From Vicinamibacterales bacterium (GTDB lineage Bacteria > Acidobacteriota > Vicinamibacteria > Vicinamibacterales > CAVVIG01), in NCBI GenBank assembly GCA_025450765.1, contig JANWLS010000199.1, positions 1 to 47,909 on the forward strand: a stretch of 47,909 nt of DNA, read 5' to 3'. Below the pieces are notes generated by a model that was not told the DNA's origin, did not search any database, and saw only the letters and a list, made by a program, of their open reading frames with translations. The translations under genes and the position numbers were made by a program. Shown piece by piece: positions 7,869 through 26,140 of this stretch (its first letter is position 1; every line of letters begins with the position of its first letter).

Positions 7869-7874
7869 GGGGTG

Positions 7875-8654: not shown

Positions 8655-11480
8655 ATGACGACTCGGATGTGTGGGCTGATCGTGGCGCTCTCCGCCGCAC
8701 TCGCCCTCACCATGACTTCGTCGGCCGCGCTGAGCGCGCAACAGGCGACGCCGCCTGCGACGGCGACGTCTGCCGCGCAGCGCGCGATGTCGCCGGCCGC
8801 GCAGAAGGCGCTCGTGCAGAAGTACTGCGTCACCTGCCACAACGATGCCCAGATGACGGGGGGCCTCTCGCTGGAGTCGTTCAATCCCTCCAAGGTCGAT
8901 CCGAGCGTGGCCGGTTTGATGGTCGGCAAGTTGAAGCGGCACGCGATGCCGCCGGCCGGCATGCCGCAGCCGGACAACGCGACGCGCGACGCGTTCATCA
9001 CCGCCTTGTCGGCCGAAGCGGTGAACGCGCCCGCCGGGTCGCACGCCGACGCGAAGACCGCGGCTCCGCCGCAGATGCCGCACGTGGTCGGGGCGCCGAA
9101 GATCGTGTCGTTCGTGCATCACGGCGACGTGATGTCGGTGGCCGAGCAGAACACGATGGTGCACACCATCTGCACGCAGTGCCACGTCGACCAGATCAAG
9201 CCTGGCGGCCTCTCGTTCCAGCACTTCGACATGGCGCAGGCCACGGCCCACCCGAAGATCGCCGAAGACATGCTCGCCAAGCTGCGCGCCGGGATGATGC
9301 CGAAGGCGAGCGCGCCGGTCCGGCCCGACGCGGCGTCGATTCATGCGTTCGTCGTGTCGCTCGAGCACCGGATCGATCGCGCCGCCGCGGCGCATCCCGA
9401 TCCGGGCACGCGCACCTTCCAGCGGCTCAATCGGACGGAGTACACGGACTCCATCCGTACGATGCTCGGCTTGTCGGTGGACGTGAGCCAGTGGCTCCCG
9501 CCCGACACCATGAGCCACAACTTCGACAACATCGCGGACGTGCAGCAGATGTCGCCGACGCTGCTCCAGAGCTATCTGGATGCGGCGGATGAAATCAGCC
9601 GGCTGGCGATCGGCGATCCGCACGCGGTCGCTTCGTCACTGACGTATCCAGCGAGCCCGACCGGTTCCCAGATGCAGCACGTGCCGGGCGCCCCGTACGG
9701 AACGCGCGGCGGCGTGTCGGCCGTCCACATCTTCCCGGCCGACGGCACCTACACCTTCAACGTGCTCTTCTTCGGCGTGCCGACGGGGCAGCTGTATGGA
9801 TCGACGGTGAAGGACGAGCACGTCGAGATTTCGATCGACGGCCAACGCGTGGCGCTGCTCGCGATCGACCCGCACATGAGCGAGTCGAGCCCCCACGGCC
9901 TCAACCTCACGACCGCGCCGATCCAGGTGAAGGCCGGTCCGCATCGCGTCGCGGCCGCGTTCCCGAAGCGGTTCGACGGCCCGATCGACGACCTGCTCAA
10001 GCCGCATCGCTACACGCTGGCCGACACGCAGATCGGCGACGGCCAGGGCGTGACGACGCTCCCGCACGTGCGGACGCTCACGGTCACCGGCCCGCTGCAC
10101 GTCACCGGCGTGTCAGACACGATCAGCCGCGACAGGATCTTCAGTTGCCGGCCGGTGAGCGCGGCCGACGAAGTGCCGTGCGCGACCTCGATCATCAAGC
10201 GCCTGGCGGCGGAAGCCTACCGGCGGCCCGTGAGCGCGACCGACCTGCAGCCGCTGCTCAACTTCTACCAGCTCGGACGCAGGCAGGGCGATTTCGAGAA
10301 CGGGATCCGGATGGCGCTCGAGGCGATTCTCGCCAGCCCGCACTTCCTCTTCCGCCTCGAGCCGCGGCCGGTCACGGTGTCGGCGGGCCAGAACTATCAG
10401 ATCCCGGACATGGCGCTCGCCTCGCGCCTGTCCTACTTCCTGTGGGCCACGCCACCCGACGCGACGCTCATCACGCTGGCGCAGCAGGGGCGCTTGCATC
10501 AGTCCACGGTGCTCGACGCGCAGGTGCACCGGATGCTGCAGGATCCGCGTGCCTACGCGCTCTCGACGCGGTTTGCGGCGCAGTGGCTGCGGCTGCAGGA
10601 CGTGGACAAGGTCCGGCCCGACGCCCTCCAGTATCCGCAGTACGACGCGACGCTCGCCGAGGCGATGAAGACGGAAACCGAGGACTTCTTCAACAGCATC
10701 GTCACGGGCGATCACGACGTGCTCGATTTGCTGACGGCCGACTACACCTACGCCAATCAGGAGCTCGCGGCGTTCTACGGCATCGACGGCGTGGCCGGAC
10801 CGCAGTTCCGGAAGGTGTCGCTCGCCGGGACGCACCGGCGGGGGATTCTCGGTGAAGGCGCCATCCAGGTGGAGCCGTCGGTCGCCGATCGCAGCGATCC
10901 GGTGCTGCGCGGCAAGTGGGTGCTCGAAGTGCTGCTCGGCCAGCCACCCCCGCCGCCGCCGCCGAACGTCGACACGAATCTCGACGACTCCGCCAAGGCG
11001 GTGCAGGGCGGCAAGACGCTCTCGGTGCGCCAGCGGATGGAGGAGCATCGCGCGAATCCATTCTGCGCGTCGTGTCACAGCGTGATCGATCCGATCGGCC
11101 TGTCGCTCGAGAACTTCGGGCCGTCGGGACACTGGCGGATTCGGGACAACGGCGTGCCGGTCGATGCGTCGACGGTGCTCTACGACGGCACGGCCATGAA
11201 CGGCCTCGACGGGCTCGAGCAGGCGATGCTCGGGCACCGGGACACGTTCCTGCGGGTATTCACGGAGAACCTGATGGCGTACGCGCTGGGGCGGCAGGTC
11301 GAGTACTTCGACATGCCGACGGTGCGCGCCGTCATCCATCGGGCGGCGCAGCACGGCAACCGCTTTTCCTCGTACGTGATTGGCATCGTCGAAAGCGATG
11401 CCTTCCGCATGAGCCGGGCGGGCGCTCTGAGCGCGGCAAATGCGGATCACCAGGACCATCAGAAAAACGGATCGAACTGA
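8655..11480 (+). CDS. module A tri-haem cytochrome, DUF1587/1595/1592/1588/1585 family
   Basis: A 941-residue exported protein with a signal peptide (cleavage likely near residue 28, ALSAQQ). There are three CxxCH haem sites: Cys58-His62 (CVTCH), Cys173-His177 (CTQCH) and Cys804-His808 (CASCH). The first two lie in tandem PSCyt-like domains, each with a downstream Met-Pro pair (MPPAG, MMPK) that could give the sixth ligand. DUF1587 follows at about 255-320 (FQRLNRTEYTDSIRTMLGL), then a beta-rich region, DUF1595 with 'AAEAYRRPVSATDLQPLLNF', DUF1592 (LASRLSYFLWATPPDATLI), DUF1588 around the third haem, and DUF1585 at the end. ATG 8655 precedes the signal peptide; an upstream in-frame ATG at 8595 would spoil it. 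Family function is unknown; a periplasmic redox role is inferred from the haems. Confidence 0.92.
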   Translation: MTTRMCGLIVALSAALALTMTSSAALSAQQATPPATATSAAQRAMSPAAQKALVQKYCVTCHNDAQMTGGLSLESFNPSKVDPSVAGLMVGKLKRHAMPPAGMPQPDNATRDAFITALSAEAVNAPAGSHADAKTAAPPQMPHVVGAPKIVSFVHHGDVMSVAEQNTMVHTICTQCHVDQIKPGGLSFQHFDMAQATAHPKIAEDMLAKLRAGMMPKASAPVRPDAASIHAFVVSLEHRIDRAAAAHPDPGTRTFQRLNRTEYTDSIRTMLGLSVDVSQWLPPDTMSHNFDNIADVQQMSPTLLQSYLDAADEISRLAIGDPHAVASSLTYPASPTGSQMQHVPGAPYGTRGGVSAVHIFPADGTYTFNVLFFGVPTGQLYGSTVKDEHVEISIDGQRVALLAIDPHMSESSPHGLNLTTAPIQVKAGPHRVAAAFPKRFDGPIDDLLKPHRYTLADTQIGDGQGVTTLPHVRTLTVTGPLHVTGVSDTISRDRIFSCRPVSAADEVPCATSIIKRLAAEAYRRPVSATDLQPLLNFYQLGRRQGDFENGIRMALEAILASPHFLFRLEPRPVTVSAGQNYQIPDMALASRLSYFLWATPPDATLITLAQQGRLHQSTVLDAQVHRMLQDPRAYALSTRFAAQWLRLQDVDKVRPDALQYPQYDATLAEAMKTETEDFFNSIVTGDHDVLDLLTADYTYANQELAAFYGIDGVAGPQFRKVSLAGTHRRGILGEGAIQVEPSVADRSDPVLRGKWVLEVLLGQPPPPPPPNVDTNLDDSAKAVQGGKTLSVRQRMEEHRANPFCASCHSVIDPIGLSLENFGPSGHWRIRDNGVPVDASTVLYDGTAMNGLDGLEQAMLGHRDTFLRVFTENLMAYALGRQVEYFDMPTVRAVIHRAAQHGNRFSSYVIGIVESDAFRMSRAGALSAANADHQDHQKNGSN

Positions 11481-11492
11481 GGGAGGATGAGA

Positions 11493-12923
11493 ATGTTTCT
11501 CACACAGAAGAAGCTGTCGCGCCGCACGGTCCTGAAGGGGATGGGCGTCACCATGGCGCTGCCGTTTCTCGACGCCATGGTTCCGGCCGGCAAGGCGTGG
11601 GCGAAGACGCCGGCTGGCCAGGCCATGAGCCAACCGCGGCTGGTCGCGATGGAGATGGTGCACGGCTGCGCGGGAAGCGCGCACCTGGGCTGGAACGAGA
11701 ACATGTGGTCGCCGGCCAAGGCCGGGAGCGACTTCGACATCACCCAGTCGAGCCTGAAGTCGCTCCAGCCGCTGCGCGACTACCTGACCATCGTCAGCAA
11801 CACGCGGAATCATGCCGCCGAAGCGTGGTCGGCGCCGGAAGTCGGCGGCGATCACTTCCGCTCGAGCGCGACCTACCTGACGCAGGCGCACCCGAAGCAG
11901 ACCGAAGGATCGGACATCCACGACGGCGTCTCGATCGACCAGATCTACGCGCAGGTGCACGGCAAGTCGCTCGCCATCCCCTCGATGCAGCTCTGTATCG
12001 AGCCGGTGGACCAGGGCGGCGGCTGCGCCTACGGCTACGCCTGCGTCTACATGGACACGATCTCCTGGGCCTCCCCGACCGAACCGCTGCCGATGATCCG
12101 CGACCCCCGCGCGGTCTTCAACCAGCTGTTCGGCCTGGGGGGCACTCCCCAGGATCGCGCGCAGCGCCGGCAGGCCAACGCGAGCATCCTGGACTGGCTC
12201 ACCAGCCAGGTCTCCGATCTGAAGCGCGATCTCGGCCCGCAGGATCGGGTGAAGCTGACCAACTATCTCGATGACGTGCGCGAGATCGAGCGGCGGATCC
12301 AGAACGTCGAGGCACGCAACAAGAGCGGCGCGATGCGCGACCTGCCCGAGGCGCCGATCGGCGTGCCCGACTCGTTCCACGAGCACGTGCACCTGATGAT
12401 GGACCTCATCGCCGCCGCCTTCCAGTCGGATCTCACGCGGACGTTCACCTTCAAGCTCGGACGCGATGCGTCGGGCCGTGTCTACCCGGGTGCCGGCGGC
12501 AAGGCGGCGACGGCGGCGTTCCATCCGACATCGCATCACCAGGAGAAGGAAGACCGCCTGCGCATCTTCCAGGCGATCAACACCTATCACGTGAGCATGG
12601 TGCCCTACCTGGCCAACAAGCTGAAGAGCATCCAGGAGGCCGACGGCAACCTGCTCGAGAAGAGCCTGCTGATCTACGGATCGCCGATGGGCGACTCGAA
12701 CCTCCACAACCACGTGCGGCTGCCGCTCTTCATGGTGGGCCACGCGGCCGGCCAGCTGAAGGGGAACAACCACATCATCGCGCCCGACAACACGCCGATG
12801 GCCAATGTGTGGCTGACCGTCCTCAACATGCTCGGCGTGCAGAAGGACAAGTTCCAGAACAGCACGAACGCCATGGACCTCAACTCGGCCGGTGTGATCA
12901 CGACCACGTCGACCGCGGCCTAG
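11493..12923 (+). CDS. module A Tat-exported DUF1552 protein
   Basis: A 476-residue protein with a twin-arginine signal: LSRRTVLKGMGVTMALPFLD, arginines 10-11, then a hydrophobic stretch and AKAWA-type end. The body is DUF1552 (PF07586), whose signature HxxSHH appears as HPTSHH at 344-349. Another family block reads 'LCIEPVDQGGGCAYGYACVY'. The protein is structurally likely to be alkaline-phosphatase/sulfatase-like by its relation to DUF1501-type proteins, but no activity is established. The ATG at 11493 lies six bases after GGAGG; ATG 11487 overlaps that site. It starts 12 nt after the cytochrome stop, so the two are surely co-transcribed. Tat export suggests folding or cofactor loading in the cytoplasm before export. 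Confidence 0.92.
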   Translation: MFLTQKKLSRRTVLKGMGVTMALPFLDAMVPAGKAWAKTPAGQAMSQPRLVAMEMVHGCAGSAHLGWNENMWSPAKAGSDFDITQSSLKSLQPLRDYLTIVSNTRNHAAEAWSAPEVGGDHFRSSATYLTQAHPKQTEGSDIHDGVSIDQIYAQVHGKSLAIPSMQLCIEPVDQGGGCAYGYACVYMDTISWASPTEPLPMIRDPRAVFNQLFGLGGTPQDRAQRRQANASILDWLTSQVSDLKRDLGPQDRVKLTNYLDDVREIERRIQNVEARNKSGAMRDLPEAPIGVPDSFHEHVHLMMDLIAAAFQSDLTRTFTFKLGRDASGRVYPGAGGKAATAAFHPTSHHQEKEDRLRIFQAINTYHVSMVPYLANKLKSIQEADGNLLEKSLLIYGSPMGDSNLHNHVRLPLFMVGHAAGQLKGNNHIIAPDNTPMANVWLTVLNMLGVQKDKFQNSTNAMDLNSAGVITTTSTAA

Positions 12924-12937
12924 GAGCGGACATCGTG

Positions 12938-14680: not shown

Positions 14681-14708
14681 CGCGCGACCAACGACGGGAT
14701 ATCTGGTC

Positions 14709-17561
14709 ATGATGAAACGCGTAAGCGGAATTCTGGTGGCACTCGCGGGCGGCCTGGCGCTCGGCTTCGGGCTGCAGGCGAGTCCGGCGGCGCAGCAGGC
14801 GTCGGCGAACTCGACCACGGCGCCTCCCGCGGCCACGGCCAGCGCCAGCGCGCAGGGGACGATGTCGCCCGCGGCGCAGAAGGCGGTCGTGCAGAAGTAC
14901 TGCGTCACCTGCCACAACGACGCGCAGATGACGGGCGGGCTCTCCCTGCAGCAGTTCGACGCCACGAAAGTGGATCCGAGCATCGCCGGCCTGATGGTCG
15001 GCAAGCTGAAGGCGCACGCGATGCCCCCGGCGGGGATGCCGCAGCCGGACAACGCCACGCGCGCCGCGTTCATCGCGGCGCTGCAGGCGGAGGCGGTCGG
15101 GCAGAAGGGATCCTCGAAGCCGTCGAGCGCGAGCGCGGCGCCGCCGAAGATGCCGTCGCGGACCGGACCGGCGAAGATCGTCAGCTTCGTGCACCACGGC
15201 GACGTGATGTCGGTGGCCGAGCAGGACAAGATGGTGCACGCCATCTGCACCCAGTGCCACATCGACGCGATCAAGCCGGGCGGGCTGTCGTTCGAGCACC
15301 TGCACATGGCCGATCTGCCGGTGAAGCACCCTGATATCGCCGAGAACATGATCGCCAAGCTGCAGGCGGGGATGATGCCGAAGGCGAGCGCGCCGGTCCG
15401 GCCGGACCAGGCGTCCATCAATGCCTTCGTCGCCTCGCTCGAGAGCCGAATCGACAAGCGCGCGGCCACGCATCCCGATCCCGGCTCGCGCACGTTCCAG
15501 CGGCTCAACCGGGTGGAGTACGCCGCCTCGATCAGGAACCTGCTCGGGCTCTCGGTCGACGTGAGCCAGTGGCTGCCGCCCGACACGATGAGCCACAACT
15601 TCGACAACATCGCGGACGTGCAGGAGATGTCGCCGACGCTGCTCCAGGCGTATCTCGATGCCGCCGATGAAATCAGCCGGCTCGCCGTGGGCGATCCGCA
15701 CGTGGTGGCCTCCGCCGCCAGTTACCCGGCGAGCACCACCGCCTCCCAGGTCGAGCACGTCCCCGGGGCGCCGCTCGGCACGCGCGGCGGGCTCTCGGTC
15801 CTTCACGTGTTCCCGGCCGACGGGACCTACAGCTTCAAGGCCCTGCTCTTCGCGGTCTCGACCGGCGGGCTCTTCGGATCGCGGCTCGCCAACCAGCAGA
15901 TCGAAATCTCGATCGACGGCCAGCGCGTGGCGCTGCTGAAGGTCGACCCGCAGATGAGCGAGTCGAAGCCCCACGGGCTCGAGCTGAGCACGCCGCCCAT
16001 CGAAATCAAGGCGGGGCAGCATCGCGTCTCGGCCGCGTTCCTCAAGGAGAGCGACGCCGCCAACGACGACCTGATGGCGCCCGAGCGCTACACGCTCGCC
16101 GACCTCGACATCGGCGACGACTTCGGCGTCACCGAGTATCCGCACCTGCGGATCCTGACGATCACCGGGCCGATGCACGTCACGGGCGTCTCGAACACGA
16201 TCAGCCGCGACAAGATCTTCGTCTGCCGGCCGATCACCGCGGGTGACGAGCTGCCCTGCGCGACGCGGATCGTGCGGAAGCTCGCGACCGAGGCCTATCG
16301 CGCGCCGGTGTCGGCGACCGAGCTGCAGCCGCTGATGAAGTTCTATCAGCTCGGGCGTCAGCAGGGCGATTTCGAGAACGGCATCCGGATGGCGCTCCAG
16401 GCCGTCCTGGCGAGCCCGCACTTCCTCTTCCGGCTCGAGCCGCGGCCGGTCACGGTGAAGGCCGCCGCGAACTACCGGATCCCGGACCTCGCGCTCGCCT
16501 CGCGCCTGTCCTACTTCCTCTGGGCGACGCCGCCCGATGCGACGCTCATCAAGCTGGCGGAGCAGGACCGGCTGCATGAGCCGACCGTGCTCGAAGCGCA
16601 GGTGAAGCGGATGCTGCAGGACCCGCGCGCCTACGCGCTCTCGACCAGGTTCGCGGCCCAGTGGCTCCGCCTGGAGGACGTCGACAAGGTCCGGCCCGAC
16701 GCGCTGATGTATCCGCAGTACGACGCGACGCTCGCCAGGGACATGAAGACGGAAACCGAGGACTTCTTCAACAGCATCGTCACGGGCGACCAGAACGTCC
16801 TCAACCTGCTGACGGCGGACTACACCTACGTGAACCAGGATCTGGCGAACTTCTATGGCATCAAGGGCGTCGCCGGGCCGCAGTTCCAGAAGGTGTCGCT
16901 CGATGGGACGCACCGCCGCGGCATTCTCGGCGAGGGCGCCATCCAGGTGGAGACGTCGGTCGCCGAGCGCAGCGACCCGGTGCTGCGCGGCAAGTGGGTC
17001 CTCGAAGTGCTGCTCGGGCAGCCGCCACCCCCGCCGCCGCCGAACGTCGATACGAACCTGGACGACTCGGCCAAGTCGGTCGAGAACGGCAAGCCGCTCT
17101 CGGTGCGGCAGCGGATGGAAGAGCACCGCGCGAATCCGTTCTGCGCCTCGTGCCACAGCGTGATCGATCCGATCGGGCTCTCGATGGAGAACTTCGGGCC
17201 TTCGGGTCACTGGCGGATTCGTGACAACGGCGTGGACGTGGACAACTCGACGACGCTCTACGACGGCACGAAGATGGTGGGGCTGGACGGCCTGGTGACC
17301 GCGATGATGAAGCACCAGGACACGTTCCTCACCGTGTTCACCGAAAACCTGATGGCCTACGCGCTTGGCCGGCAGGTCGAGTACTTCGACATGCCGACCG
17401 TGCGGGCCGTGATCGACCAGGCGAAGCGGCACGGCAACCATTTCTCCTCGTACGTGATGGGGATCGTCCAGAGCGACGCGTTCCGGATGAGCCGGGCCGG
17501 CACGCTGACGGCTGACAGCGCGGACGTCCATCAAAACCACGCGGCGACGAAGGGGCACTGA
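14709..17561 (+). CDS. module B tri-haem cytochrome, DUF1592 family
   Basis: A 950-residue close paralogue of the module A cytochrome, with near-identical stretches such as 'DVSQWLPPDTMSHNFDNIAD'. It has a signal peptide (ILVALAGGLALGFGLQASPA) and haem sites at Cys65-His69, Cys180-His184 and Cys812-His816. The domain order is the same: two tandem haem domains, DUF1587, DUF1595, DUF1592 with the proline run 'GQPPPPPPPNVDTNLDD', DUF1588 and DUF1585. It starts 28 nt after the module A ankyrin gene, so modules A and B probably form one operon. Unlike modules A and C it is followed directly by an ankyrin gene, with no DUF1552 gene or remnant between. It probably arose by tandem duplication of module A. 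Confidence 0.92.
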   Translation: MMKRVSGILVALAGGLALGFGLQASPAAQQASANSTTAPPAATASASAQGTMSPAAQKAVVQKYCVTCHNDAQMTGGLSLQQFDATKVDPSIAGLMVGKLKAHAMPPAGMPQPDNATRAAFIAALQAEAVGQKGSSKPSSASAAPPKMPSRTGPAKIVSFVHHGDVMSVAEQDKMVHAICTQCHIDAIKPGGLSFEHLHMADLPVKHPDIAENMIAKLQAGMMPKASAPVRPDQASINAFVASLESRIDKRAATHPDPGSRTFQRLNRVEYAASIRNLLGLSVDVSQWLPPDTMSHNFDNIADVQEMSPTLLQAYLDAADEISRLAVGDPHVVASAASYPASTTASQVEHVPGAPLGTRGGLSVLHVFPADGTYSFKALLFAVSTGGLFGSRLANQQIEISIDGQRVALLKVDPQMSESKPHGLELSTPPIEIKAGQHRVSAAFLKESDAANDDLMAPERYTLADLDIGDDFGVTEYPHLRILTITGPMHVTGVSNTISRDKIFVCRPITAGDELPCATRIVRKLATEAYRAPVSATELQPLMKFYQLGRQQGDFENGIRMALQAVLASPHFLFRLEPRPVTVKAAANYRIPDLALASRLSYFLWATPPDATLIKLAEQDRLHEPTVLEAQVKRMLQDPRAYALSTRFAAQWLRLEDVDKVRPDALMYPQYDATLARDMKTETEDFFNSIVTGDQNVLNLLTADYTYVNQDLANFYGIKGVAGPQFQKVSLDGTHRRGILGEGAIQVETSVAERSDPVLRGKWVLEVLLGQPPPPPPPNVDTNLDDSAKSVENGKPLSVRQRMEEHRANPFCASCHSVIDPIGLSMENFGPSGHWRIRDNGVDVDNSTTLYDGTKMVGLDGLVTAMMKHQDTFLTVFTENLMAYALGRQVEYFDMPTVRAVIDQAKRHGNHFSSYVMGIVQSDAFRMSRAGTLTADSADVHQNHAATKGH

Positions 17562-17571
17562 GAGGGATCAG

Positions 17572-19509
17572 ATGACTATGTGGCGCAACAGCTCTCTGTG
17601 GGTGGTGACACTCGGCGCGGCGCTCGCGCTCGGCGGCAGCGCGCTGACCGCGGCCGGACCGAAAGCCGCAGTTCCTCCGTCGGCGACGCCGGCCGTCGCC
17701 TCGGCCAACAGCACGACGCCGGTGGCCGACGCGGCGATGGTCAACGAGACCGCGACGGTGAAGGACCTGCTCGAGAAAGGCGAGGACGTCAACTCGGCGC
17801 AGCACGACGGGATGACCGCGCTGCACTGGGCGGCGCTCAACGACAACGCCGACATGGCGACCATGCTGCTCTACGCGGGTGCTGACGCGAATGCCGCGAC
17901 TCGGCTGGGCGGCTACACGCCGCTCGATCTGGCGGCGCGCGACGGCCACGCCGACATGGTGAAGACGCTGCTCGCCCATGGCGCCGACGCCAAGCGGGCC
18001 GATTTTCACGGGACGACCCCGCTGATGTTCGCGGCGCAGTCGGGCGACGTGCAGGAGATCTCGGATCTGCTGACGGCCGGCGCCGAGGTGAACGCGAAGG
18101 AATCGACCAAGGGCGAGACCGCGCTGATGCTGGCCGCCGCGCACGGCCGGACGGATGCCGTCAAGCTCCTCCTGTCGCACGGCGCCGACTGGAAGCCCAC
18201 GACCACCGTGCTCGATTGGACGAAGCTCCCGAAGAGCGACCCGCGCCTCCCGCACTTCCGGGGTCAGTTCGGGCAGCCGCTCCAGCCGGCCAAGAAGGGA
18301 GCGGCCGCGGAGAAAGGTGCCGCGAAGGATGCGGCGGCCAAGGGACCGGCCGACACGAACGCGCCGGCCAAGACCGCTGACGCGAAGGAAGCGAGCGCGA
18401 AGACCGTCGCGCCGCCCGATCCGAACGCGCCGCCACCCGCGCATCCCAAGACGATGACGCGCGAGATGGTGGACAAGATGGGCATGTCGCAGAAGATGAC
18501 GGACTTCCGCGGCGAGATGGGGCTGGTGCACAGCAAGGGCGGCCTGAGCGCGCTGCTCTTCGCGGCGCGCCAGGGATACACGGACACGGCCGAGGCTCTG
18601 CTCGCGGGTGGTGCGGACATCAATGAGGTCGATCCCGGTGATCACACGAGCCCGCTGCTCATGGCGATCATCAACGGCCATTACGACCTGGCGAAGTACT
18701 TCCTGGCGCACGGCGCCGACGCGAACGCGGCACAGAGCAACAACGGCGTGACGCCGCTCTACGCGGTGCTGAACTGCGAATGGGCGCCGAAGGCCGAGTA
18801 TCCGCAGCCGACCGCCTACGGCCAGCAGCAGACCAGCTATCTCGATTTGATGTCGGACCTGCTCGCGCACGGCGCCAATCCGAATGCCCGGCTGACGCAC
18901 AAAGTGTGGTACTCCGGCTACAACTTCGATCTGTCCGGCATCGACGAGACCGGCGCGACCCCGTTCTGGCGCGCCGCCTACGCGGACGACATCAACGCGA
19001 TGAAGTTGCTCGTCGCGCACGGCGCCGACCCGAACCTCGCGACGAAGAAGCCGGACAGCAACGTCAACTTCTACCGTCACAAGACGGCGCATGACTACTC
19101 CGGCCTCAAGCCGGTGCCGGCCGGCGGCCCCGATATTCCGCCGCTGCTCGCCGCCTCGGGTGAAGCCTACGGGTCGAGCCTCACCTCGAACTCGCATCGG
19201 TTCGCGCCGACGGGGATGCTCGCCGCGGTGAAGTACCTCGTCGAGGATCTGCACGTGGACGTGAACGCGCGCGACGCCGACGGCAACACGGCGCTCCACA
19301 ACGCGGCCTCGCGCGGCGACAACGCGATGATCCTCTATCTGGTGTCGCGGGGTGCGAACATCACGGCCGTGAACCGGAACGGACAGACGGTGGCGGACAT
19401 GGCCAATGGGCCGGTGCAGCGCATCGACCCATTCCCGCAGACGATCGCGCTCGTCGAGCACCTGGGCGCCAAGCTGATGCACAAGTGTTTGTCCTGCGGC
19501 CAGCAGTGA
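17572..19509 (+). CDS. module B exported ankyrin-repeat protein with CLSCG tail
   Basis: A 645-residue ankyrin protein with a signal peptide (LWVVTLGAALALGGSALTAA). Repeats run from about 55 to 230, then a long Ala/Lys/Pro-rich linker (about 235-300) ends in a Met-rich segment 'MTREMVDKMGMSQKMTDF', and repeats resume to the C-terminus. The family insert appears as 'VWYSGYNFDLSGIDETGATP'. It ends LMHKCLSCGQQ, with Cys639 and Cys642, two residues longer than its paralogues. GAGGG sits five bases before the ATG at 17572; an ATG at 17578 is alternative. It follows the module B cytochrome by 10 nt. The linker is the longest of the three, the clearest difference between the ankyrin paralogues. Confidence 0.92.
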   Translation: MTMWRNSSLWVVTLGAALALGGSALTAAGPKAAVPPSATPAVASANSTTPVADAAMVNETATVKDLLEKGEDVNSAQHDGMTALHWAALNDNADMATMLLYAGADANAATRLGGYTPLDLAARDGHADMVKTLLAHGADAKRADFHGTTPLMFAAQSGDVQEISDLLTAGAEVNAKESTKGETALMLAAAHGRTDAVKLLLSHGADWKPTTTVLDWTKLPKSDPRLPHFRGQFGQPLQPAKKGAAAEKGAAKDAAAKGPADTNAPAKTADAKEASAKTVAPPDPNAPPPAHPKTMTREMVDKMGMSQKMTDFRGEMGLVHSKGGLSALLFAARQGYTDTAEALLAGGADINEVDPGDHTSPLLMAIINGHYDLAKYFLAHGADANAAQSNNGVTPLYAVLNCEWAPKAEYPQPTAYGQQQTSYLDLMSDLLAHGANPNARLTHKVWYSGYNFDLSGIDETGATPFWRAAYADDINAMKLLVAHGADPNLATKKPDSNVNFYRHKTAHDYSGLKPVPAGGPDIPPLLAASGEAYGSSLTSNSHRFAPTGMLAAVKYLVEDLHVDVNARDADGNTALHNAASRGDNAMILYLVSRGANITAVNRNGQTVADMANGPVQRIDPFPQTIALVEHLGAKLMHKCLSCGQQ

Positions 19510-19529
19510 GAGGCAGAACTGTTGACGGG

Positions 19530-19580
19530 CTTCAGGCTGCGGGCTACGGGCCGGTCGGGCCCGAAGCCCGCAGCCTGAGG
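19530..19580 (+). repeat. GC-rich hairpin after module B, member of a dispersed repeat type
   Basis: Arms at 19530-19545 and 19565-19580 (CTTCAGGCTGCGGGCT and its complement) pair at 15 of 16 positions. No T-run follows, so it is not a classical terminator, though it may protect or end the module A/B transcript. A sequence that begins alike (GACGGGCTTC) follows the stop of the fused E1 gene at 40664. Confidence 0.6.
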
Positions 19581-19651
19581 CCTGAAGCCAATCGGTAAGG
19601 AATCGCGAACGAAGGATTAACGAAGAACTACTGAACAATCAATAAGATAGC

Positions 19652-19696
19652 TTCATCGGCCAGTTGGCTGACACTCAGAGACAACTGGTGACGAAG
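19652..19696 (+). repeat. imperfect palindrome in the module B-C gap
   Basis: CCAGTTG (19660-19666) and CAACTGG (19682-19688) are perfect inverted arms that extend outward imperfectly (TTCATCGG against GTGACGAA). This lies in the least GC-rich part of the 305-nt gap 19510-19814. It could be an operator or an RNA stem-loop. Confidence 0.45.
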
Positions 19697-19702
19697 TAAT
19701 GC

Positions 19703-19738
19703 AAAAAAAAGGCCGCACTCAACCGCGGTGCAGGCCTT
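19703..19738 (-). terminator. rho-independent-like terminator on the minus strand
   Basis: Read on the minus strand, AAGGCCTGCAC, a loop, GTGCGGCCTT and then a run of eight T (complement of 19703-19710) form a textbook intrinsic terminator. One base bulges in the stem. No minus-strand gene is recognised to its right, where the module C cytochrome lies on the plus strand, so it would end an antisense or short unannotated transcript. Confidence 0.5.
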
Positions 19739-19814
19739 ATACTTCGCAGCATCGGGGCACGTGTCCTGCCAGCCCTCCGTTGGCGTCGTGCGCCCTGAAA
19801 GAATGTAGCTGCGA

Positions 19815-22613
19815 ATGCCCAACGCCACTCTGAAATGGTGCGGTGTGCTGGCGCTCGGCCTGGGGTTGAGTGTCGGCGTCTCTCTCGATTCGCGTACAGT
19901 GGATGCACAGGCGCCTTCTGCGGCGCCCGCTCCGGCTGCGTCGCACGCGCCGAGCGCCCTCCCCGCCGACGCCCAGAAAAAACTCATCCAGGACTACTGC
20001 GTCGGCTGCCACGATGATGCGCAGCTGACCGGCGGTGTCTCCTTCCAGGCCTTCACGAGCGCGGCCGCCGTCGACCCGGTGCTCGCCGCGAAGATGGTCC
20101 ACAAGCTCAAGACCGGGCAGATGCCGCCGGCGGGCATGCCGAAGCCCGATGCGACGACGGTCAACGCCTTCGTCGCGGCGCTCGAAGCCCGCGCGCTGCC
20201 GGAAGCCGCCAAGGCCGCCGAATCGACGGCCGCCGCGCCGGTGCAGGTCATCGCCTACGCGCACACCGGCGACGTGATGACGCCGACCGTGCAGAACACG
20301 ATGGTGCGCGAGATCTGTACGCAGTGCCACAACGACAAGCAGCGCGCCGGCGGCGTCTCGATGATCGGCTTTGACGTGGCCACGGTGACCAGGTCGACCG
20401 CCCAGGCCGAGCTCGCCGAGAACATGCTGGCCAAGCTGCGCGCCGGCATGATGCCGAAGTCGAACGCGCCGAAGCGTCCAGACCAGGCCAGCATTCACGC
20501 CTTCGTGGTCTCGCTCGAGTCGCGGATCGATCGGGCCGCTGCGCTGCATCCCGACCCGGGCACGCGGACGTTCCAGCGGCTGAACCGCGCGGAATACGCC
20601 GATGCCGTCGAGACGATGCTCGGGATCGACGTCGACGTGAGCCAGTGGCTGCCGCCCGACACGATCAGCCACAACTTCGACAACATCGCGGATGCGCAGA
20701 ACTTCTCGCCGACGCTGCTCCAGGGCTATCTCGGGGCGGCTGACGCGATTGCACGGCTGGCCGTCGGCGATCCGAACGCCGGCCCGGGCTCGGCGACCTA
20801 CAGCGTGGACCGCACCGCGTCGCAGATGCTGCACGTCGACGGCGCGCCCTACGGCACGCGCGGCGGCCTCTCGGTGGTCCACATCTTCCCGGCGGACGGC
20901 ACCTACAAGTTCAAGATGCTGTTCCACGGGACGCCGACCGGACAGCTCTTCGGCAAGACGGTGCTCGGCGAGCAGATCGAAGTTTCGGTGAACGGCGTCC
21001 GCGAGGCGGTGCTCACCATTCCGCCCACGCTCGACGAGTCGGACCCGAACGGTCTGACGCTCGAGACGCCGCCCATCCACGTGGATGCGGGGCCGCAGCG
21101 CGTGTCGGCGGCGTTCATCAACCGCTTCGACGGCCCGATCGACGACTTGCTCGAGCCGCACAACCACACGCTCGCGGATACCCAGATCGGCGACGGTCAG
21201 GGGATCACGACGCTCCCGCACCTGCGCGACTTCACCATCACCGGTCCCTACAAGACGACCGGCGTGTCCGAGACGGTGAGCCGCCGCAAGGTCTTCACCT
21301 GCCGTCCGACCTCGGCGGCCGAGGAAGCGCCGTGCGCCCGCTCGATCGTGACACGCCTCGCCACCCAGGCGTACCGCCGGCCGGCGACGCCGAGCGAGAT
21401 CGCCGACGTGATGAAGTTCTACGACCGCGGCCGCAAGGATGGCGACTTCGAGTCGGGCATCCGGACGGCGCTCCAGGCGGTGCTGGTGAGCCCGCACTTC
21501 CTCTTCCGCGTGGAAGATCGGCCGGCCGCGCTCCGCGCCGGGCAGACCTACAAGATCGACAGCCTGGACCTCGCCTCGCGCCTGTCCTACTTCATCTGGG
21601 CGGCGCAGCCCGATGCGGAGTTGATCAAGGTGGCCCGGTCGGGCCGTCTCGAGGAACCGGCGGTCCTCGACGCGCAGGTGCACCGGATGCTGAAGGATCC
21701 GCGGGCCGAGTCGCTCTCGACGCGCTTCGCGTCGGAGTGGCTGCGCCTGCAGGACGTCGGCAAGATGCATCCCGACGCGATCTCGTATCCCTACTACGAC
21801 GCCACGCTCGGCGATGCGATGGTGCGCGAGACGCAGCTCTTCTTCAACAGCCTCGTGCAGGAGGATCGGAACGTCCTCGACCTGCTGACGGCCGACTACA
21901 CCTTCGTGAACGAGCGCCTCGCGCGCCACTACGGGATTCCCGGGGTGGCCGGGCCCGAGTTCCGGCGCGTGTCGCTCGTCGGCACCCACCGGCAGGGCCT
22001 GCTCGGACAGGGCAGCGTCGAGGTGCTCACCTCGGTCGCGGATCGCACCTCGCCCGTGCAGCGCGGCAAGTGGGTGCTCGAAGTGCTGCTCGGGCAGCCG
22101 CCGCCCCCGCCGCCGCCCAACGTCGACACGAACCTGGATGATTCGGCGGCCGCCGCGCAGGGCGGACGCACGCTCTCGACGCGCGAGCGCATGGAGCAGC
22201 ACCGGGCCAATCCGTTCTGCGCCTCGTGCCACAGCGTGATCGATCCGATCGGGCTCTCGCTCGAGAACTTCGATCCGACCGGCCGCTACCGGATCAAGGA
22301 CAACGGCGTGGCCGTCGATACGGCCGGCAATCTCTACGACGGGACGAGAATGGTGGGCCTCGCGGGCCTGAACGCCGCCCTCGTGAAGCACCAGGACACG
22401 ATCCTGGAGGTCTTCACCGAGAACCTCATGGCGTACGCGCTGGGACGGCGCGTCGAGTACTACGACATGCCGACGGTCCGGTCGATTATCCGGAACGCGG
22501 GGCAGCACGGCAATCACATCTCGGCGTACATCGTGGGGGTCGTGAACAGTCCGGCCTTCCGGATGAGCCGGGCGGAATCCACCACAACGACGGCGGCGCG
22601 GCAGGATCAGTAG
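19815..22613 (+). CDS. module C tri-haem cytochrome, DUF1592 family
   Basis: A 932-residue paralogue, visibly more diverged from A and B than they are from each other. It has a signal peptide (WCGVLALGLGLSVGVSL). Haem sites are Cys62-His66 (CVGCH), Cys168-His172 (CTQCH) and Cys802-His806 (CASCH). The DUF1587 block reads 'FQRLNRAEYADAVETMLGID', and 'NVDTNLDDSAAAAQGG' follows the proline run. The C-terminal DUF1585 region keeps 'VFTENLMAYALGRRVEYYDM'. The 305-nt gap upstream, with stem-loops and the lowest GC nearby, suggests its own promoter. It heads a three-gene module with DUF1552 and ankyrin genes 20 nt and then 2 nt downstream. Different residues around the first two haems could mean a different redox partner. 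Confidence 0.92.
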   Translation: MPNATLKWCGVLALGLGLSVGVSLDSRTVDAQAPSAAPAPAASHAPSALPADAQKKLIQDYCVGCHDDAQLTGGVSFQAFTSAAAVDPVLAAKMVHKLKTGQMPPAGMPKPDATTVNAFVAALEARALPEAAKAAESTAAAPVQVIAYAHTGDVMTPTVQNTMVREICTQCHNDKQRAGGVSMIGFDVATVTRSTAQAELAENMLAKLRAGMMPKSNAPKRPDQASIHAFVVSLESRIDRAAALHPDPGTRTFQRLNRAEYADAVETMLGIDVDVSQWLPPDTISHNFDNIADAQNFSPTLLQGYLGAADAIARLAVGDPNAGPGSATYSVDRTASQMLHVDGAPYGTRGGLSVVHIFPADGTYKFKMLFHGTPTGQLFGKTVLGEQIEVSVNGVREAVLTIPPTLDESDPNGLTLETPPIHVDAGPQRVSAAFINRFDGPIDDLLEPHNHTLADTQIGDGQGITTLPHLRDFTITGPYKTTGVSETVSRRKVFTCRPTSAAEEAPCARSIVTRLATQAYRRPATPSEIADVMKFYDRGRKDGDFESGIRTALQAVLVSPHFLFRVEDRPAALRAGQTYKIDSLDLASRLSYFIWAAQPDAELIKVARSGRLEEPAVLDAQVHRMLKDPRAESLSTRFASEWLRLQDVGKMHPDAISYPYYDATLGDAMVRETQLFFNSLVQEDRNVLDLLTADYTFVNERLARHYGIPGVAGPEFRRVSLVGTHRQGLLGQGSVEVLTSVADRTSPVQRGKWVLEVLLGQPPPPPPPNVDTNLDDSAAAAQGGRTLSTRERMEQHRANPFCASCHSVIDPIGLSLENFDPTGRYRIKDNGVAVDTAGNLYDGTRMVGLAGLNAALVKHQDTILEVFTENLMAYALGRRVEYYDMPTVRSIIRNAGQHGNHISAYIVGVVNSPAFRMSRAESTTTTAARQDQ

Positions 22614-22633
22614 CGCCTACTGAGGAGACCGAT

Positions 22634-24067
22634 ATGTCATTCATCACGAAGAAGCACCTGTCCCGCCGGACGGTCCTGAAGGGCATGGGCGTCAGCCTGG
22701 CGCTGCCGTTCCTCGACGCCATGGCGCCTGCGGGCACGGCGTGGGCGAAGACGGCGGCCGGCCAGTCCGCCAGCAAGACCCGGCTCATCGCCATCGAGAT
22801 GGTGCACGGCTCGGCCGGCAGCACCGAGCTCGGGATCAAGGAGAACATGTGGTCGCCGGCTGCCGTGGGCCACAGCTTCGACCTGGGGCCGACGAGCCTC
22901 AAGGCCCTGGATCCGTATCGCGAGTACCTGACCATCGTCAGTGGCACGACGGTTCACGGCGCCGAAGCGTGGTCCGCTCCGGAAGTCGGTGGCGATCACT
23001 TCCGCTGCAGTGCGACCTACCTCACGCAGTCGCATCCGAAGCAGACGGAAGGGTCGGACATCCACGCCGGGACGTCGATCGATCAGATCTACGCCCGGAC
23101 GTACGGTCAGGACACCGCGATTCCCTCGATGCAGCTCTGTATCGAGCCGGTCGACCAGGCGGGCGGCTGCGCCTACGGCTACGCTTGCGTCTACACCGAC
23201 TCGATCTCGTGGGCCTCACCGACCGAGCCGCTGCCGATGATCCGCGACCCGCGCGCGGTGTTCGATCAGCTGTTCGGCGAAGGCTCCACCGCCAAGGAGC
23301 GGTCGATCCGGCGGCAGACCAACGCCAGCATGCTCGACTGGGTGGCGGCGCAGGTCACCGACATGAAGCGGCAGCTCGGGCCATCGGACCGCGCGAAGCT
23401 CAGTAACTACCTGGACGACGTGCGCGAGATCGAGCGGCGCATCCAGAACATCGAGGCGCACAACAAGAGCGGCGAGCCGCGCGAGCTGCCCGAGGCCCCG
23501 GTGGGCGTCCCCGACTCGTTCGAGGAGCACGTGCACCTGATGTTCGACCTGCAGGCGATCGCGCTGCAGTCGGATCTCACCCGCGTGTTCTCGTTCAAGA
23601 TGGGCCGCGACGGATCGGGCCGCGTGTATCCCGGCAGCGGCGTCACGACCGGCTTCCACAACGCCTCGCACCACCAGGAGAAGGAAGAGCGGCTGCGCGA
23701 CTTCCAGAAGATCAACGCGTATCACGTCAGCACGCTCTCCTACATGCTGGCCAAGCTGAAGGGGATCCAGGAAGGCGACAGCAGCCTGCTCGACAAGAGC
23801 CTCATCGTGTACGGCTCGCCCATGGGCGACTCGAACCTGCACAACCACAAGCGCTGCCCGCTCATCCTGCTCGGCCACGCCAACGGCCAGGTGAAGGGCA
23901 ACAACCACGTGAAGGTGCCGGTCGACACGCCGATGGCGAACACGATGCTGGCCGTGCTGCAGAAGCTCGGGGTGCAGAAGGACAAGTTCTCCGACAGCAC
24001 CGAGGCGATGGACCTGAATGGCGCGGCGATGACGACGACCGCGGCCGAGAATCGGCAGGGGATCTAG
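22634..24067 (+). CDS. module C Tat-exported DUF1552 protein
   Basis: A 477-residue paralogue of the module A DUF1552 protein. Its Tat signal is 'HLSRRTVLKGMGVSLALPFL' with arginines 11-12, and the family signature is HNASHH at 342-347. The block 'IEPVDQAGGCAYGYACVYTD' is almost the same as in module A. GAGGAG lies six bases before the ATG at 22634, which excludes longer in-frame starts inside the cytochrome gene. It carries no haem motif. Its stop is 2 nt from the ankyrin start, so the two products are likely made in step. That both full modules keep the order cytochrome, DUF1552, ankyrin argues for a functional unit. Confidence 0.92.
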   Translation: MSFITKKHLSRRTVLKGMGVSLALPFLDAMAPAGTAWAKTAAGQSASKTRLIAIEMVHGSAGSTELGIKENMWSPAAVGHSFDLGPTSLKALDPYREYLTIVSGTTVHGAEAWSAPEVGGDHFRCSATYLTQSHPKQTEGSDIHAGTSIDQIYARTYGQDTAIPSMQLCIEPVDQAGGCAYGYACVYTDSISWASPTEPLPMIRDPRAVFDQLFGEGSTAKERSIRRQTNASMLDWVAAQVTDMKRQLGPSDRAKLSNYLDDVREIERRIQNIEAHNKSGEPRELPEAPVGVPDSFEEHVHLMFDLQAIALQSDLTRVFSFKMGRDGSGRVYPGSGVTTGFHNASHHQEKEERLRDFQKINAYHVSTLSYMLAKLKGIQEGDSSLLDKSLIVYGSPMGDSNLHNHKRCPLILLGHANGQVKGNNHVKVPVDTPMANTMLAVLQKLGVQKDKFSDSTEAMDLNGAAMTTTAAENRQGI

Positions 24068-24069
24068 CC

Positions 24070-25890
24070 ATGTGGCGTCACGCGCTGACGACCGTCGCGC
24101 TGGTCGCGACGGTTGGCCTCGTCGCCGCGGTTCCGGGGCGGCCGCTGCTCGCCGCCCAGAGCGGTTCGCCGGTCGCGGACGCGGCGATGCGCAGCGACGT
24201 CACGCTCGTCAAGAACCTGCTGCAGCAGGGCGGCGACGTGAATGCCGCGCAGGGCGACGGCATGACGGCCCTGCACTGGGCCGCCCTGTCGGGTAACGCC
24301 GATCTCGCGCAGATGCTGCTCTACGCGGGTGCCAATCCCAATGCCACCACGCGGCTCGGCGGCTATACGCCGCTCCACGTGGCCGCCAAGAACGCGCACG
24401 CGGCCGTCGTCGAGGCGCTGCTCAAGGGCGGCGCCGACGCGAAGGCGGCGACGTCCGACGGCACGACGGCGCTGATGTTCGCTTCCGAGGCCGGCAGCCT
24501 CGACTCGATGACGTCGCTGCTCGATCATGGCGCCGACGTGAACGCGGCGGAATCGGCGAAGGGAGAGACGGCCCTGATGTTCGCCTCCGCCTACGACCGC
24601 GTCGACGCGGTGAAGTTGCTGCTGCAGCACGGCGCGAATGCGAAGGCGACCTCGAAAGTGATCGATTGGAGCAAGCTGCCGAAGGACGATCCGCGCCTGT
24701 CGCAGTTCGGGCGGCGTGCGGCACCCGCCGCGGGCGCGAAGAAGCCGGGTGCGCCGGCGAGCGCCGAGGCGGCCGAAACGGCGGAGGCGGCCCAGGCCGG
24801 CCTCGGCCGGCGAGCTGCGGTCAAGGCCAAGGGCAACGCCGATGCGCAGGCGGCGCAGATCGAGGAGCTTCTGGGCGGGTACGCCAAGCTGGTCGGCCGG
24901 CAGGGCGGCCTGACGCCACTCCTTTTCGCCGCACGCCAGGGCAATACGCAGACGGTGCAGGCGCTCCTGGACGGCGGCGCGGAGATCAACCAGGTCGATG
25001 CCGGCCAGCACACGAGCCCGCTGCTCGTGGCCGTCATGAACGGGCACTTCGATCTCGCCGAGCAACTCCTGGCGAAAGGCGCCGATCCCAACCTGGCGCA
25101 GGACAACGGGGTCACGCCGCTCTACGCGGCGCTGAACTGCGTGTGGGCGCCGCGGACGCTGTATCCGCAGCCGACCGCGTACCGCCAGCAGAAGACCACC
25201 TATCTTCAGCTCATGAGCGATCTGCTCGCGCACGGTGCGAAGCCGAACGTGCGGCTGAAGGAGAAGGTCTGGTACTCCGGCTACAACTTCGATCAGTCGG
25301 GCGTGGACGAAACGGGTGCGACGCCGTTCTGGCGGGCGGCCTGGGCCGACGACATCGACGCGATGAGGCTGCTCGTCGCGCACGGCGCCGATCCGACGAT
25401 CGCGACGATGAAGCCGAAGGGACGCGTGCCGACCGGCACCGGCAACCTGGACGATGAAAAGGCCGCGAAGGCCAAGGCCGATCCGTCGGGCCGTCCGCCC
25501 GTCGCCGTGGGCGGACCGGACATCACGCCGCTGCTCGCCGCCTCCGGTGAGGCGTACGGGTCGAGCTTCACGGCCAACCACCATCGCTACGCGCCGACGG
25601 GGATGCTCGCGGCCGTGAAGTACCTCATCGAAGATCTGCACGCGGACGTGAACCAGGCCGACGCGGATGGCAACACGGCGCTGCACAACGCGGCGGCGCG
25701 CGGCGACAACGAGATGATTCTCTATCTCGTCGCGAAGGGCGCCGACGTGAAAGCCGTGAACCGCCGTGGCCAGACGATTCCGGATCTGGCCAACGGACCC
25801 ATTCAGCGCATCAGCCCGTTCCCCGAGACGATCGCGCTGCTGCAGCGCCTCGGCGCCAGGCTCGCGCACAAGTGCCTCTCCTGCGGCTAG
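24070..25890 (+). CDS. module C exported ankyrin-repeat protein with CLSCG tail
   Basis: A 606-residue ankyrin protein with a signal peptide (VALVATVGLVAAVPGRPLLA). Repeats cover about 35-205 ('DGMTALHWAALSGNADLAQM', 'GGYTPLHVAAKNAHAAVVEA'), an Ala-rich helical linker follows (about 215-275), and repeats continue to the end. The family insert is 'VWYSGYNFDQSGVDETGATP'. The protein ends LAHKCLSCG, with Cys602 and Cys605, so the tail is kept in all three paralogues although the preceding residues vary. The ATG is 2 nt from the DUF1552 stop; AGGGGAT just upstream may act as ribosome-binding site. It ends module C; two repeat elements follow. Confidence 0.92.
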   Translation: MWRHALTTVALVATVGLVAAVPGRPLLAAQSGSPVADAAMRSDVTLVKNLLQQGGDVNAAQGDGMTALHWAALSGNADLAQMLLYAGANPNATTRLGGYTPLHVAAKNAHAAVVEALLKGGADAKAATSDGTTALMFASEAGSLDSMTSLLDHGADVNAAESAKGETALMFASAYDRVDAVKLLLQHGANAKATSKVIDWSKLPKDDPRLSQFGRRAAPAAGAKKPGAPASAEAAETAEAAQAGLGRRAAVKAKGNADAQAAQIEELLGGYAKLVGRQGGLTPLLFAARQGNTQTVQALLDGGAEINQVDAGQHTSPLLVAVMNGHFDLAEQLLAKGADPNLAQDNGVTPLYAALNCVWAPRTLYPQPTAYRQQKTTYLQLMSDLLAHGAKPNVRLKEKVWYSGYNFDQSGVDETGATPFWRAAWADDIDAMRLLVAHGADPTIATMKPKGRVPTGTGNLDDEKAAKAKADPSGRPPVAVGGPDITPLLAASGEAYGSSFTANHHRYAPTGMLAAVKYLIEDLHADVNQADADGNTALHNAAARGDNEMILYLVAKGADVKAVNRRGQTIPDLANGPIQRISPFPETIALLQRLGARLAHKCLSCG

Positions 25891-26133: not shown

Positions 26134-26140
26134 GTTCTTG

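What the first reader, a model, noticed from the sequence alone, without database searches (positions are those of the whole stretch)
8655..25890. Triplicated exported module: tri-haem DUF1592 cytochrome, Tat DUF1552 protein and ankyrin protein
Eight consecutive plus-strand genes are all exported and fall into three modules with a fixed order. Cytochrome and ankyrin proteins have Sec-type signals and the DUF1552 proteins have twin-arginine signals. Gaps inside modules are 2-20 nt. The families are known only as domains of unknown function, so the reaction, substrate and electron acceptor are undefined. Inference: the three products form a periplasmic redox assembly, with the ankyrin protein as scaffold and the Tat protein as a pre-folded, possibly metal-loaded partner.
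Basis: partly seen in the sequence, partly recalled or inferred. Interest (0 to 1): 0.82.

Follow-up and report, generated by a model that had tools for sequence, protein, structure and literature searches.

The report
Ankyrin-linked periplasmic haem redox module
The eight genes are three copies of a widely inherited three-gene unit (a multi-haem protein, an exported metal-enzyme-like protein and an exported ankyrin-repeat protein) that probably oxidises sugar-like compounds outside the inner membrane, and it turns a long-standing 'unknown function' gene pair into something that can be tested.

Summary
The order is cyt-DUF1552-ank, cyt-ank, cyt-DUF1552-ank at 8655-25890, all on the plus strand. 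It is not a local triplication. The same genome has 12 DUF1592 genes, 10 DUF1552 genes and about 13 of these ankyrin genes, and all 10 DUF1552 genes sit between a DUF1592 and an ankyrin gene. In 79 named-genome loci plus this genome, 99 of 114 ankyrin genes directly follow a cyt-DUF1552 pair; most exceptions are contig ends. In 28 further genomes 87 of 92 DUF1552 genes lie just downstream of DUF1592, and 57 of 64 family-specific ankyrin genes sit beside them. Partners co-evolve.

New here: DUF1552 is predicted to have an alkaline-phosphatase/sulfatase fold (Z 14.9). The cytochrome hides a CBM6/35/36-like beta-sandwich (residues 327-485, Z 9.4). Relatives include a CBM26-sugar-dehydrogenase-DUF1592 natural fusion followed by DUF1552, and DUF1592-DUF1552 operons with cytochrome b561.

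Best reading: a self-contained periplasmic oxidoreductase unit, probably for carbohydrate-like substrates, with the ankyrin protein as a dedicated assembly or maturation partner. Unit: strong. Redox wiring: good. Substrate and ankyrin role: inferred.

The parts
8655..11480 (+). cytA: tri-haem PSD/DUF1592 cytochrome, 941 aa, Sec-like signal; CXXCH at residues 58, 173, 804; CBM-like beta-sandwich at residues 327-485
9633..10109 (+). part of cytA encoding residues 327-485, CBM6/35/36-like beta-sandwich not annotated by Pfam
   Evidence: AlphaFold2 model; 7ay3 CBM36 Z 9.4, rmsd 2.7, 107 aligned; no Pfam hit there
11487..12923 (+). dufA: Tat-exported DUF1552 (HXXSHH) protein, 478 aa
12938..14680 (+). 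ankA: exported ankyrin-repeat protein ending HKCVSCG (GTG start at 12935 possible)
14709..17561 (+). cytB: tri-haem DUF1592 cytochrome, 950 aa, 76% identical to cytA
17572..19509 (+). ankB: exported ankyrin-repeat protein ending HKCLSCGQQ; directly after cytB with no DUF1552
19815..22613 (+). cytC: tri-haem DUF1592 cytochrome, 932 aa, older paralogue (63% to cytA)
22634..24067 (+). dufC: Tat-exported DUF1552 protein, 477 aa; predicted alkaline-phosphatase-superfamily fold
24070..25890 (+). ankC: exported ankyrin-repeat protein ending HKCLSCG
26138..27517 (+). possible fourth member: mono-haem (one CXXCH) protein of a family without Pfam/NCBIfam name; the same family directly follows an ankyrin gene of this type on contig C21 of this genome and in L048
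   Evidence: tentative

Best explanation
Each module encodes one self-contained exported oxidoreductase unit. The PSD/DUF1592 cytochrome is the electron-carrying body: N-terminal haem domain(s), an embedded CBM6/35/36-like domain that would hold a carbohydrate or similar polyol-rich substrate, and a strongly conserved C-terminal haem domain (PSCyt3). The DUF1552 protein, folded in the cytoplasm and exported by Tat, has an alkaline-phosphatase-like fold with many invariant histidines and acts as the substrate-handling (probably metal-containing) partner. Electrons leave through the haems to a cytochrome c / quinone-linked carrier. The ankyrin protein, with a C-terminal CXXC tail, is a dedicated partner that assembles or matures this pair (docking, haem or thiol handling) rather than an enzyme. 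Paralogous modules in one genome would serve different substrates. Shown: gene unit, order, co-evolution, export motifs, haem motifs, conserved CXXC. Predicted: both folds. Inferred: carbohydrate-like substrate, direction of electron flow, ankyrin role.
For: Unit: 10/10 DUF1552 genes of this genome lie between cyt and ank; 99 of 114 ank genes follow CYT-DUF; 87/92 DUF1552 just downstream of DUF1592 and 57/64 family-specific ank genes beside them in 28 genomes; genome-level presence 104, 101 and 95 of 149. Partner distance correlations 0.88/0.83/0.83, and swapping partners between neighbouring modules reached the observed value in 2, 0 and 0 of 1000 shuffles. Redox wiring: three CXXCH; DUF1592-DUF1552 followed by cytochrome c' and cytochrome b561, with a TonB receptor upstream, in Sphingobium herbicidovorans, and DUF1592-DUF1552-cytochrome b561 in Sphingobium sp. 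TomTYG65. Carbohydrate link: embedded CBM-like fold; natural fusion CBM26 x3 + GSDH sugar dehydrogenase + cyt c + PSD3-5-4-Cyt3-PSD2 directly before DUF1552 in Pseudoalteromonas; DUF1592-DUF1552-3-keto-disaccharide hydrolase in Planctomyces; triad near an OprB sugar porin in Novosphingobium; galactarate/altronate dehydratase genes near modules on C24 of this genome and in L112; GMC + gluconate-2-dehydrogenase subunit 3 or PQQ dehydrogenases near modules in several loci. Literature: PSCyt genes linked to CBMs and sulfatases in Verrucomicrobia (PMC5615132); a cytochrome domain of the DUF1587-containing Cbp2D reduces LPMOs (PMC8981238). DUF1552 fold: Z 14.9, 276 aligned.
Against: No activity, metal, substrate or interaction is shown. 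Several DUF1592-DUF1552 neighbourhoods are not sugar-like (Rieske and flavin monooxygenases in S. herbicidovorans, acyl-CoA dehydrogenases in TomTYG65), and the short Sphingobium DUF1592 proteins have no room for the CBM-like domain. Neighbour enrichment was not measured against a genome background. The DUF1552 active-site region has pLDDT below 50, and a profile comparison with sulfatases found no sequence relationship (shallow profiles). The ankyrin gene is absent from a minority of DUF1592-DUF1552 pairs in this class and from most of the plasmid-borne pairs seen, so it is not essential to the core chemistry.
Confidence: 0.45

Rival explanations
1. The ankyrin protein is a haem or thiol maturation factor for the exported cytochrome (like Cj1386, which traffics haem to catalase), using its C-terminal CXXC on apocytochrome or DUF1552, and is not part of the finished complex.
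For: C-terminal CXXC in 107 of 109 full-length proteins with the second Cys usually the last residue; precedent of an ankyrin protein dedicated to a haem enzyme, Cj1386-KatA (table and reference in PMC4518328); one dedicated ank per cytochrome.
Against: The Novosphingobium triad ankyrin lacks the CXXC; general c-type maturation systems would not need a dedicated copy per cytochrome; some DUF1592-DUF1552 pairs do without it.
Confidence: 0.3
2. DUF1552 is a hydrolase (sulfatase/phosphatase type) and the unit removes sulfate or phosphate esters; the cytochrome only targets it to polysaccharides.
For: Predicted fold matches sulfatases and phosphodiesterases (Z up to 14.9); PSCyt genes often lie near sulfatases in Verrucomicrobia (PMC5615132).
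Against: By motif reading the nucleophile position is an invariant His in DUF1552 (GGDHFR, residue 122) rather than Ser/Thr/Cys, though this part of the model is unreliable; two or three haems plus cytochrome b561 partners are unexplained by hydrolysis.
Confidence: 0.2
3. The unit exports electrons (extracellular electron transfer or a periplasmic electron sink) rather than oxidising a specific substrate.
For: Multi-haem exported protein; large copy number.
Against: Two to three haems only, and no porin-cytochrome conduit genes were recognised beside the modules; CBM-like domain and sugar-enzyme fusion.
Confidence: 0.1
4. Peroxide defence unit analogous to an ankyrin-catalase pair.
For: Exported ankyrin next to a haem protein (precedent in PMC4518328).
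Against: No catalase or peroxidase domain in the cytochrome; recurrent neighbours are not stress genes.
Confidence: 0.05

Closest known systems
Planctomycete-type (PSCyt3/PSD) DUF1592 cytochrome next to an unknown-family gene, as noted in freshwater Verrucomicrobia (PMC5615132)
   Same: Same domain set, an adjacent partner gene of unknown function, links to CBMs and carbohydrate genes
   Different: Here a third dedicated gene, an exported ankyrin protein with C-terminal CXXC, follows; a CBM-like fold lies inside the cytochrome; extra N-terminal haem; 11 or more copies
Cellvibrio Cbp2D (DUF1587 and cytochrome domains with a CBM; PMC8981238)
   Same: Multi-domain exported cytochrome with DUF1587 and a carbohydrate-binding domain; one of its domains donates electrons to LPMOs
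   Different: No DUF1552 or ankyrin partner described there; no sequence match of our cytochrome to a solved cytochrome domain
Alkaline phosphatase superfamily (sulfatases, NPPs, LtaS)
   Same: Predicted overall fold of DUF1552
   Different: No detectable sequence relationship; canonical nucleophile not recognised; Tat export; tied to a cytochrome
LacABC-type periplasmic sugar 3-dehydrogenase (PMC9007349)
   Same: Periplasmic sugar oxidation; GMC/subunit-3 and 3-keto-disaccharide hydrolase genes occur near some DUF1592 or module loci
   Different: The module itself has no GMC or subunit-3 protein
Ankyrin partners of haem enzymes (Cj1386-KatA, PMC4518328; AnkB-KatB of Pseudomonas, from memory)
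   Same: Dedicated ankyrin protein for a haem protein
   Different: Different haem protein family, three-gene order, C-terminal CXXC

Membership tests
DUF1592 / planctomycete-type PSD cytochromes | PSD3, PSD5, PSD4, PSCyt3, PSD2 domains above curated cut-offs | tested here: met
   all five in all three proteins and in 36 of 36 aligned relatives
DUF1592 / planctomycete-type PSD cytochromes | c-type haem motif in PSCyt3 | tested here: met
   CASCH at residues 802-812 in all three
DUF1552 (PF07586, HXXSHH) | profile match above cut-off and HXXSHH motif | tested here: met
   270 and 285 bits against 30; H342, S345, H346 invariant in 41 sequences
Alkaline phosphatase superfamily | alkaline-phosphatase fold | tested here: met
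   predicted model only: Z 14.9, rmsd 4.4, 276 aligned to sulfatase 7stt
Alkaline phosphatase superfamily | Ser/Thr/Cys nucleophile and metal-ligand set | tested here: inconclusive
   His at the nucleophile position by eye; region pLDDT below 50
Alkaline phosphatase superfamily | detectable sequence homology | tested here: inconclusive
   hhalign to own-genome sulfatases found nothing, but profiles are shallow, Neff about 2
CBM6/35/36 modules | beta-sandwich fold | tested here: met
   predicted model only: Z 9.4 to CBM36 7ay3, rmsd 2.7, 107 of 124 aligned; a shared fold, not proven family membership
CBM6/35/36 modules | carbohydrate binding | not testable with these tools
   needs the purified domain
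LacABC-type sugar dehydrogenase | GMC oxidoreductase and Gluconate_2-dh3 subunits in the unit | tested here: not met
   absent from the module; only nearby in L048, L056, L082
Ankyrin haem-trafficking partners (Cj1386 type) | required for haem loading of the partner | not testable with these tools
   needs genetics and biochemistry

The most novel reading that the evidence does not exclude
A new class of periplasmic carbohydrate oxidoreductase: an alkaline-phosphatase-fold protein whose nucleophile position has become a histidine-rich metal site works as a redox enzyme, passing electrons to a CBM-bearing multi-haem cytochrome, with a dedicated ankyrin/CXXC protein assembling each paired set; genomes carry one to dozens of paralogous sets for different substrates.
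Probability: 0.2. Interest if true: 0.88.

Novelty: new variant of a known kind. Interest (0 to 1): 0.64.

Why it matters
DUF1592/DUF1552 genes reach dozens of candidate copies per genome in some genomes of this class, and He et al. (PMC5615132) state that nothing is known about the function of such cytochromes. Showing that a dedicated ankyrin gene belongs to the unit, that the cytochrome carries a carbohydrate-binding-like domain, that DUF1552 has a hydrolase-like fold, and that a complete triad exists in a sequenced soil isolate outside the hard-to-grow phyla (Novosphingobium sp. KACC 22771) makes the question directly testable.

Tried and rejected
Natural fusions among the three module genes: none seen in the loci called. 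Solved relatives by sequence: none. Sequence-level link of DUF1552 to sulfatases by hhalign: none. DUF1501 sister family in this genome: no match. A conserved fourth gene: recurrent only in a minority; SusC/SusD pairs in 8 loci and the mono-haem family in 3. An early reading of L060/L069 neighbours as a DUF1549/DUF1501 pair was wrong; from their N-terminal sequences they look like pyruvate dehydrogenase genes (not profile-tested). Promoter/terminator scan uninformative. Literature: no paper in the library held both DUF1592 and DUF1552, and none found describes the ankyrin link. The helical PSD3/4/5/2 parts were barely tested by the fold search, so no claim is made about them.

Full report
Observation. 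The eight genes are real, in the stated order and strand. The three cytochromes are 59-76% identical, the two DUF1552 proteins 72%, the three ankyrin proteins 52-59%. All three cytochromes carry PSD3-PSD5-PSD4(DUF1592)-PSCyt3-PSD2 with three CXXCH each.

It is a genome-wide unit, not a local triplication. In the same genome (3.3 Mb, 82.6% complete) there are 12 DUF1592, 10 DUF1552 and about 13 related ankyrin loci. Gene calls on the contigs put all 10 DUF1552 genes between a DUF1592 gene and an ankyrin gene, same order and strand. The exceptions are module B (no DUF1552), a cytochrome at a contig end (C230), an ankyrin at a contig end (C21) and one solitary ankyrin gene (C140). The order CYT-ANK-CYT-DUF-ANK of modules B and C recurs in a second genome of the genus (G126:C145). 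Trees show the modules of this genome as one lineage-specific expansion with recurrent sister pairs (C184/C4 and C213/C70 in all three trees); cytA and cytB are recent sisters, cytC is older.

Conservation elsewhere. A profile of the ankyrin proteins found 79 loci in named genomes, mostly Acidobacteriota and Gemmatimonadota MAGs. With the own-genome contigs included, 99 of 114 ankyrin genes directly follow CYT-DUF, 4 follow DUF at a contig edge and 5 are themselves at an edge. In 28 genomes of the same class chosen across families, 87 of 92 DUF1552 genes lie just downstream of DUF1592 on the same strand, and 70 have an ankyrin match downstream. Of ankyrin matches above 200 bits 57 of 64 are beside the pair, of those at 100-200 bits 18 of 24, of those below 100 bits 1 of 19. 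In 149 genomes of the class DUF1552 is in 104, DUF1592 in 101 and the ankyrin family in 95. So the pair is the core and the ankyrin protein a frequent, dedicated third member. Partner distances across 77 complete triads correlate at 0.88, 0.83 and 0.83; exchanging partners only between neighbouring modules of one locus reached these values in 2, 0 and 0 of 1000 trials. Among the eight own-genome triads alone the correlation stands out only for CYT-DUF (2 of 5000).

Anatomy. Relatives mostly have two CXXCH; the own-genome proteins have a further N-terminal haem domain (11 of 11). A model of cytA (mean pLDDT 79.7) shows a beta-sandwich at residues 327-485 that Pfam does not annotate. The best structural matches are CBM36, CBM6 and CBM35 modules (7ay3, Z 9.4, rmsd 2.7, 107 aligned). 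Within the genome the PSCyt3 haem domain is the most conserved part (80% mean identity) and the CBM-like part the least (53%), as expected if haem chemistry is fixed and substrate binding varies; this is inference. A model of dufC (mean pLDDT 71.8, active-site region low) matches the alkaline phosphatase superfamily throughout the list (Z up to 14.9). Invariant or nearly invariant residues include E55, H58, D121, H122, H342, S345, H346, N401, H403, H405 and H425; by motif reading His122 takes the place of the usual nucleophile, which I mark as unproven. The ankyrin proteins end in (H/N)xCxxC, often as the very last residues.

Function from context. Plasmid records are informative. In Pseudoalteromonas sp. 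Bsw20308 DUF1552 directly follows a 2157-residue protein that joins three CBM26 modules, a glucose/sorbosone dehydrogenase domain, a cytochrome c domain and the whole PSD3-PSD5-PSD4-PSCyt3-PSD2 set. In Planctomyces sp. SH-PL62 the order is DUF1587, DUF1592, DUF1552, 3-keto-disaccharide hydrolase. Novosphingobium sp. KACC 22771, a soil isolate with a complete plasmid, carries an overlapping CYT-DUF-ANK triad (not listed in the PLSDB table) near an OprB carbohydrate porin. In Sphingobium herbicidovorans DUF1592-DUF1552 is followed by cytochrome c' and cytochrome b561 and preceded by a TonB receptor; Sphingobium sp. TomTYG65 has the pair followed by cytochrome b561. Near modules in Acidobacteriota and Gemmatimonadota there are galactarate/altronate dehydratase genes (C24 of this genome, L112), GMC oxidoreductase with gluconate-2-dehydrogenase subunit 3 (L048, L056, L082), PQQ dehydrogenases and SusC/SusD pairs. 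Not all neighbourhoods are sugar-like, and enrichment over background was not measured.

Conclusion. A co-inherited exported redox unit is well supported. Wiring to the cytochrome/quinone chain is supported by two ankyrin-free homologous operons. A carbohydrate-like substrate is the best of several options. The ankyrin protein is a dedicated partner whose role (docking, haem or thiol maturation) is open; Cj1386, an ankyrin protein for haem trafficking to catalase, is a relevant precedent (PMC4518328). Literature found: PSCyt genes beside unknown families and CBMs (PMC5615132), Cbp2D (PMC8981238), 3-keto-glycoside catabolism (PMC9007349). Nothing found describes the ankyrin-linked triad.

Noticed in passing
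window 26138-27517; L040:16421-17638; L048:11764-13137: Mono-haem (one CXXCH) protein family without Pfam or NCBIfam name that directly follows an ankyrin gene of this kind in three places; possible fourth member.
   Followed up: partly
window 7872-8381: PCYCGC / CYCXC family protein just upstream of module A, below the NCBIfam cut-off.
   Followed up: no
L039:7532-9424 (contig C140): Solitary ankyrin-module protein with no cytochrome or DUF1552; the closest relative of ankC; its neighbourhood includes a GH39 gene.
   Followed up: no
L035:6933-8684 (contig C70): The ankyrin gene of this module is split by an in-frame TAG into two reading frames, so it may be decaying or mis-assembled.
   Followed up: no
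L128:1698-8171: 2157-aa natural fusion of CBM26 x3, glucose/sorbosone dehydrogenase and the DUF1592 domain set, followed by DUF1552.
   Followed up: partly
L125:9479-14626: Complete CYT-DUF1552-ankyrin triad in Novosphingobium sp. KACC 22771 plasmid, with no gene listed in the PLSDB table; its ankyrin protein lacks the C-terminal CXXC.
   Followed up: yes
L060:9758-11545 and L069:6234-11632: Ankyrin gene alone (L060) or the whole triad (L069) sits behind what look like pyruvate dehydrogenase (E1, E2, E3) genes, read from N-terminal sequence only.
   Followed up: no
L045:12078-16468: The triad is followed by what look like [NiFe]-hydrogenase structural and maturation genes (from sequence reading, not profile-tested).
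   Followed up: no
window 3991-6459 and 30880-33402: Two large permease-like genes with the same N-terminal pattern (MacB/ADOP-like by sequence reading) on either side of the cluster.
   Followed up: no
L121-L123: Own-genome sulfatase-family proteins of 700-750 aa; L122 also matches designed and natural TPR proteins over its C-terminal part in the PDB sequence search.
   Followed up: no
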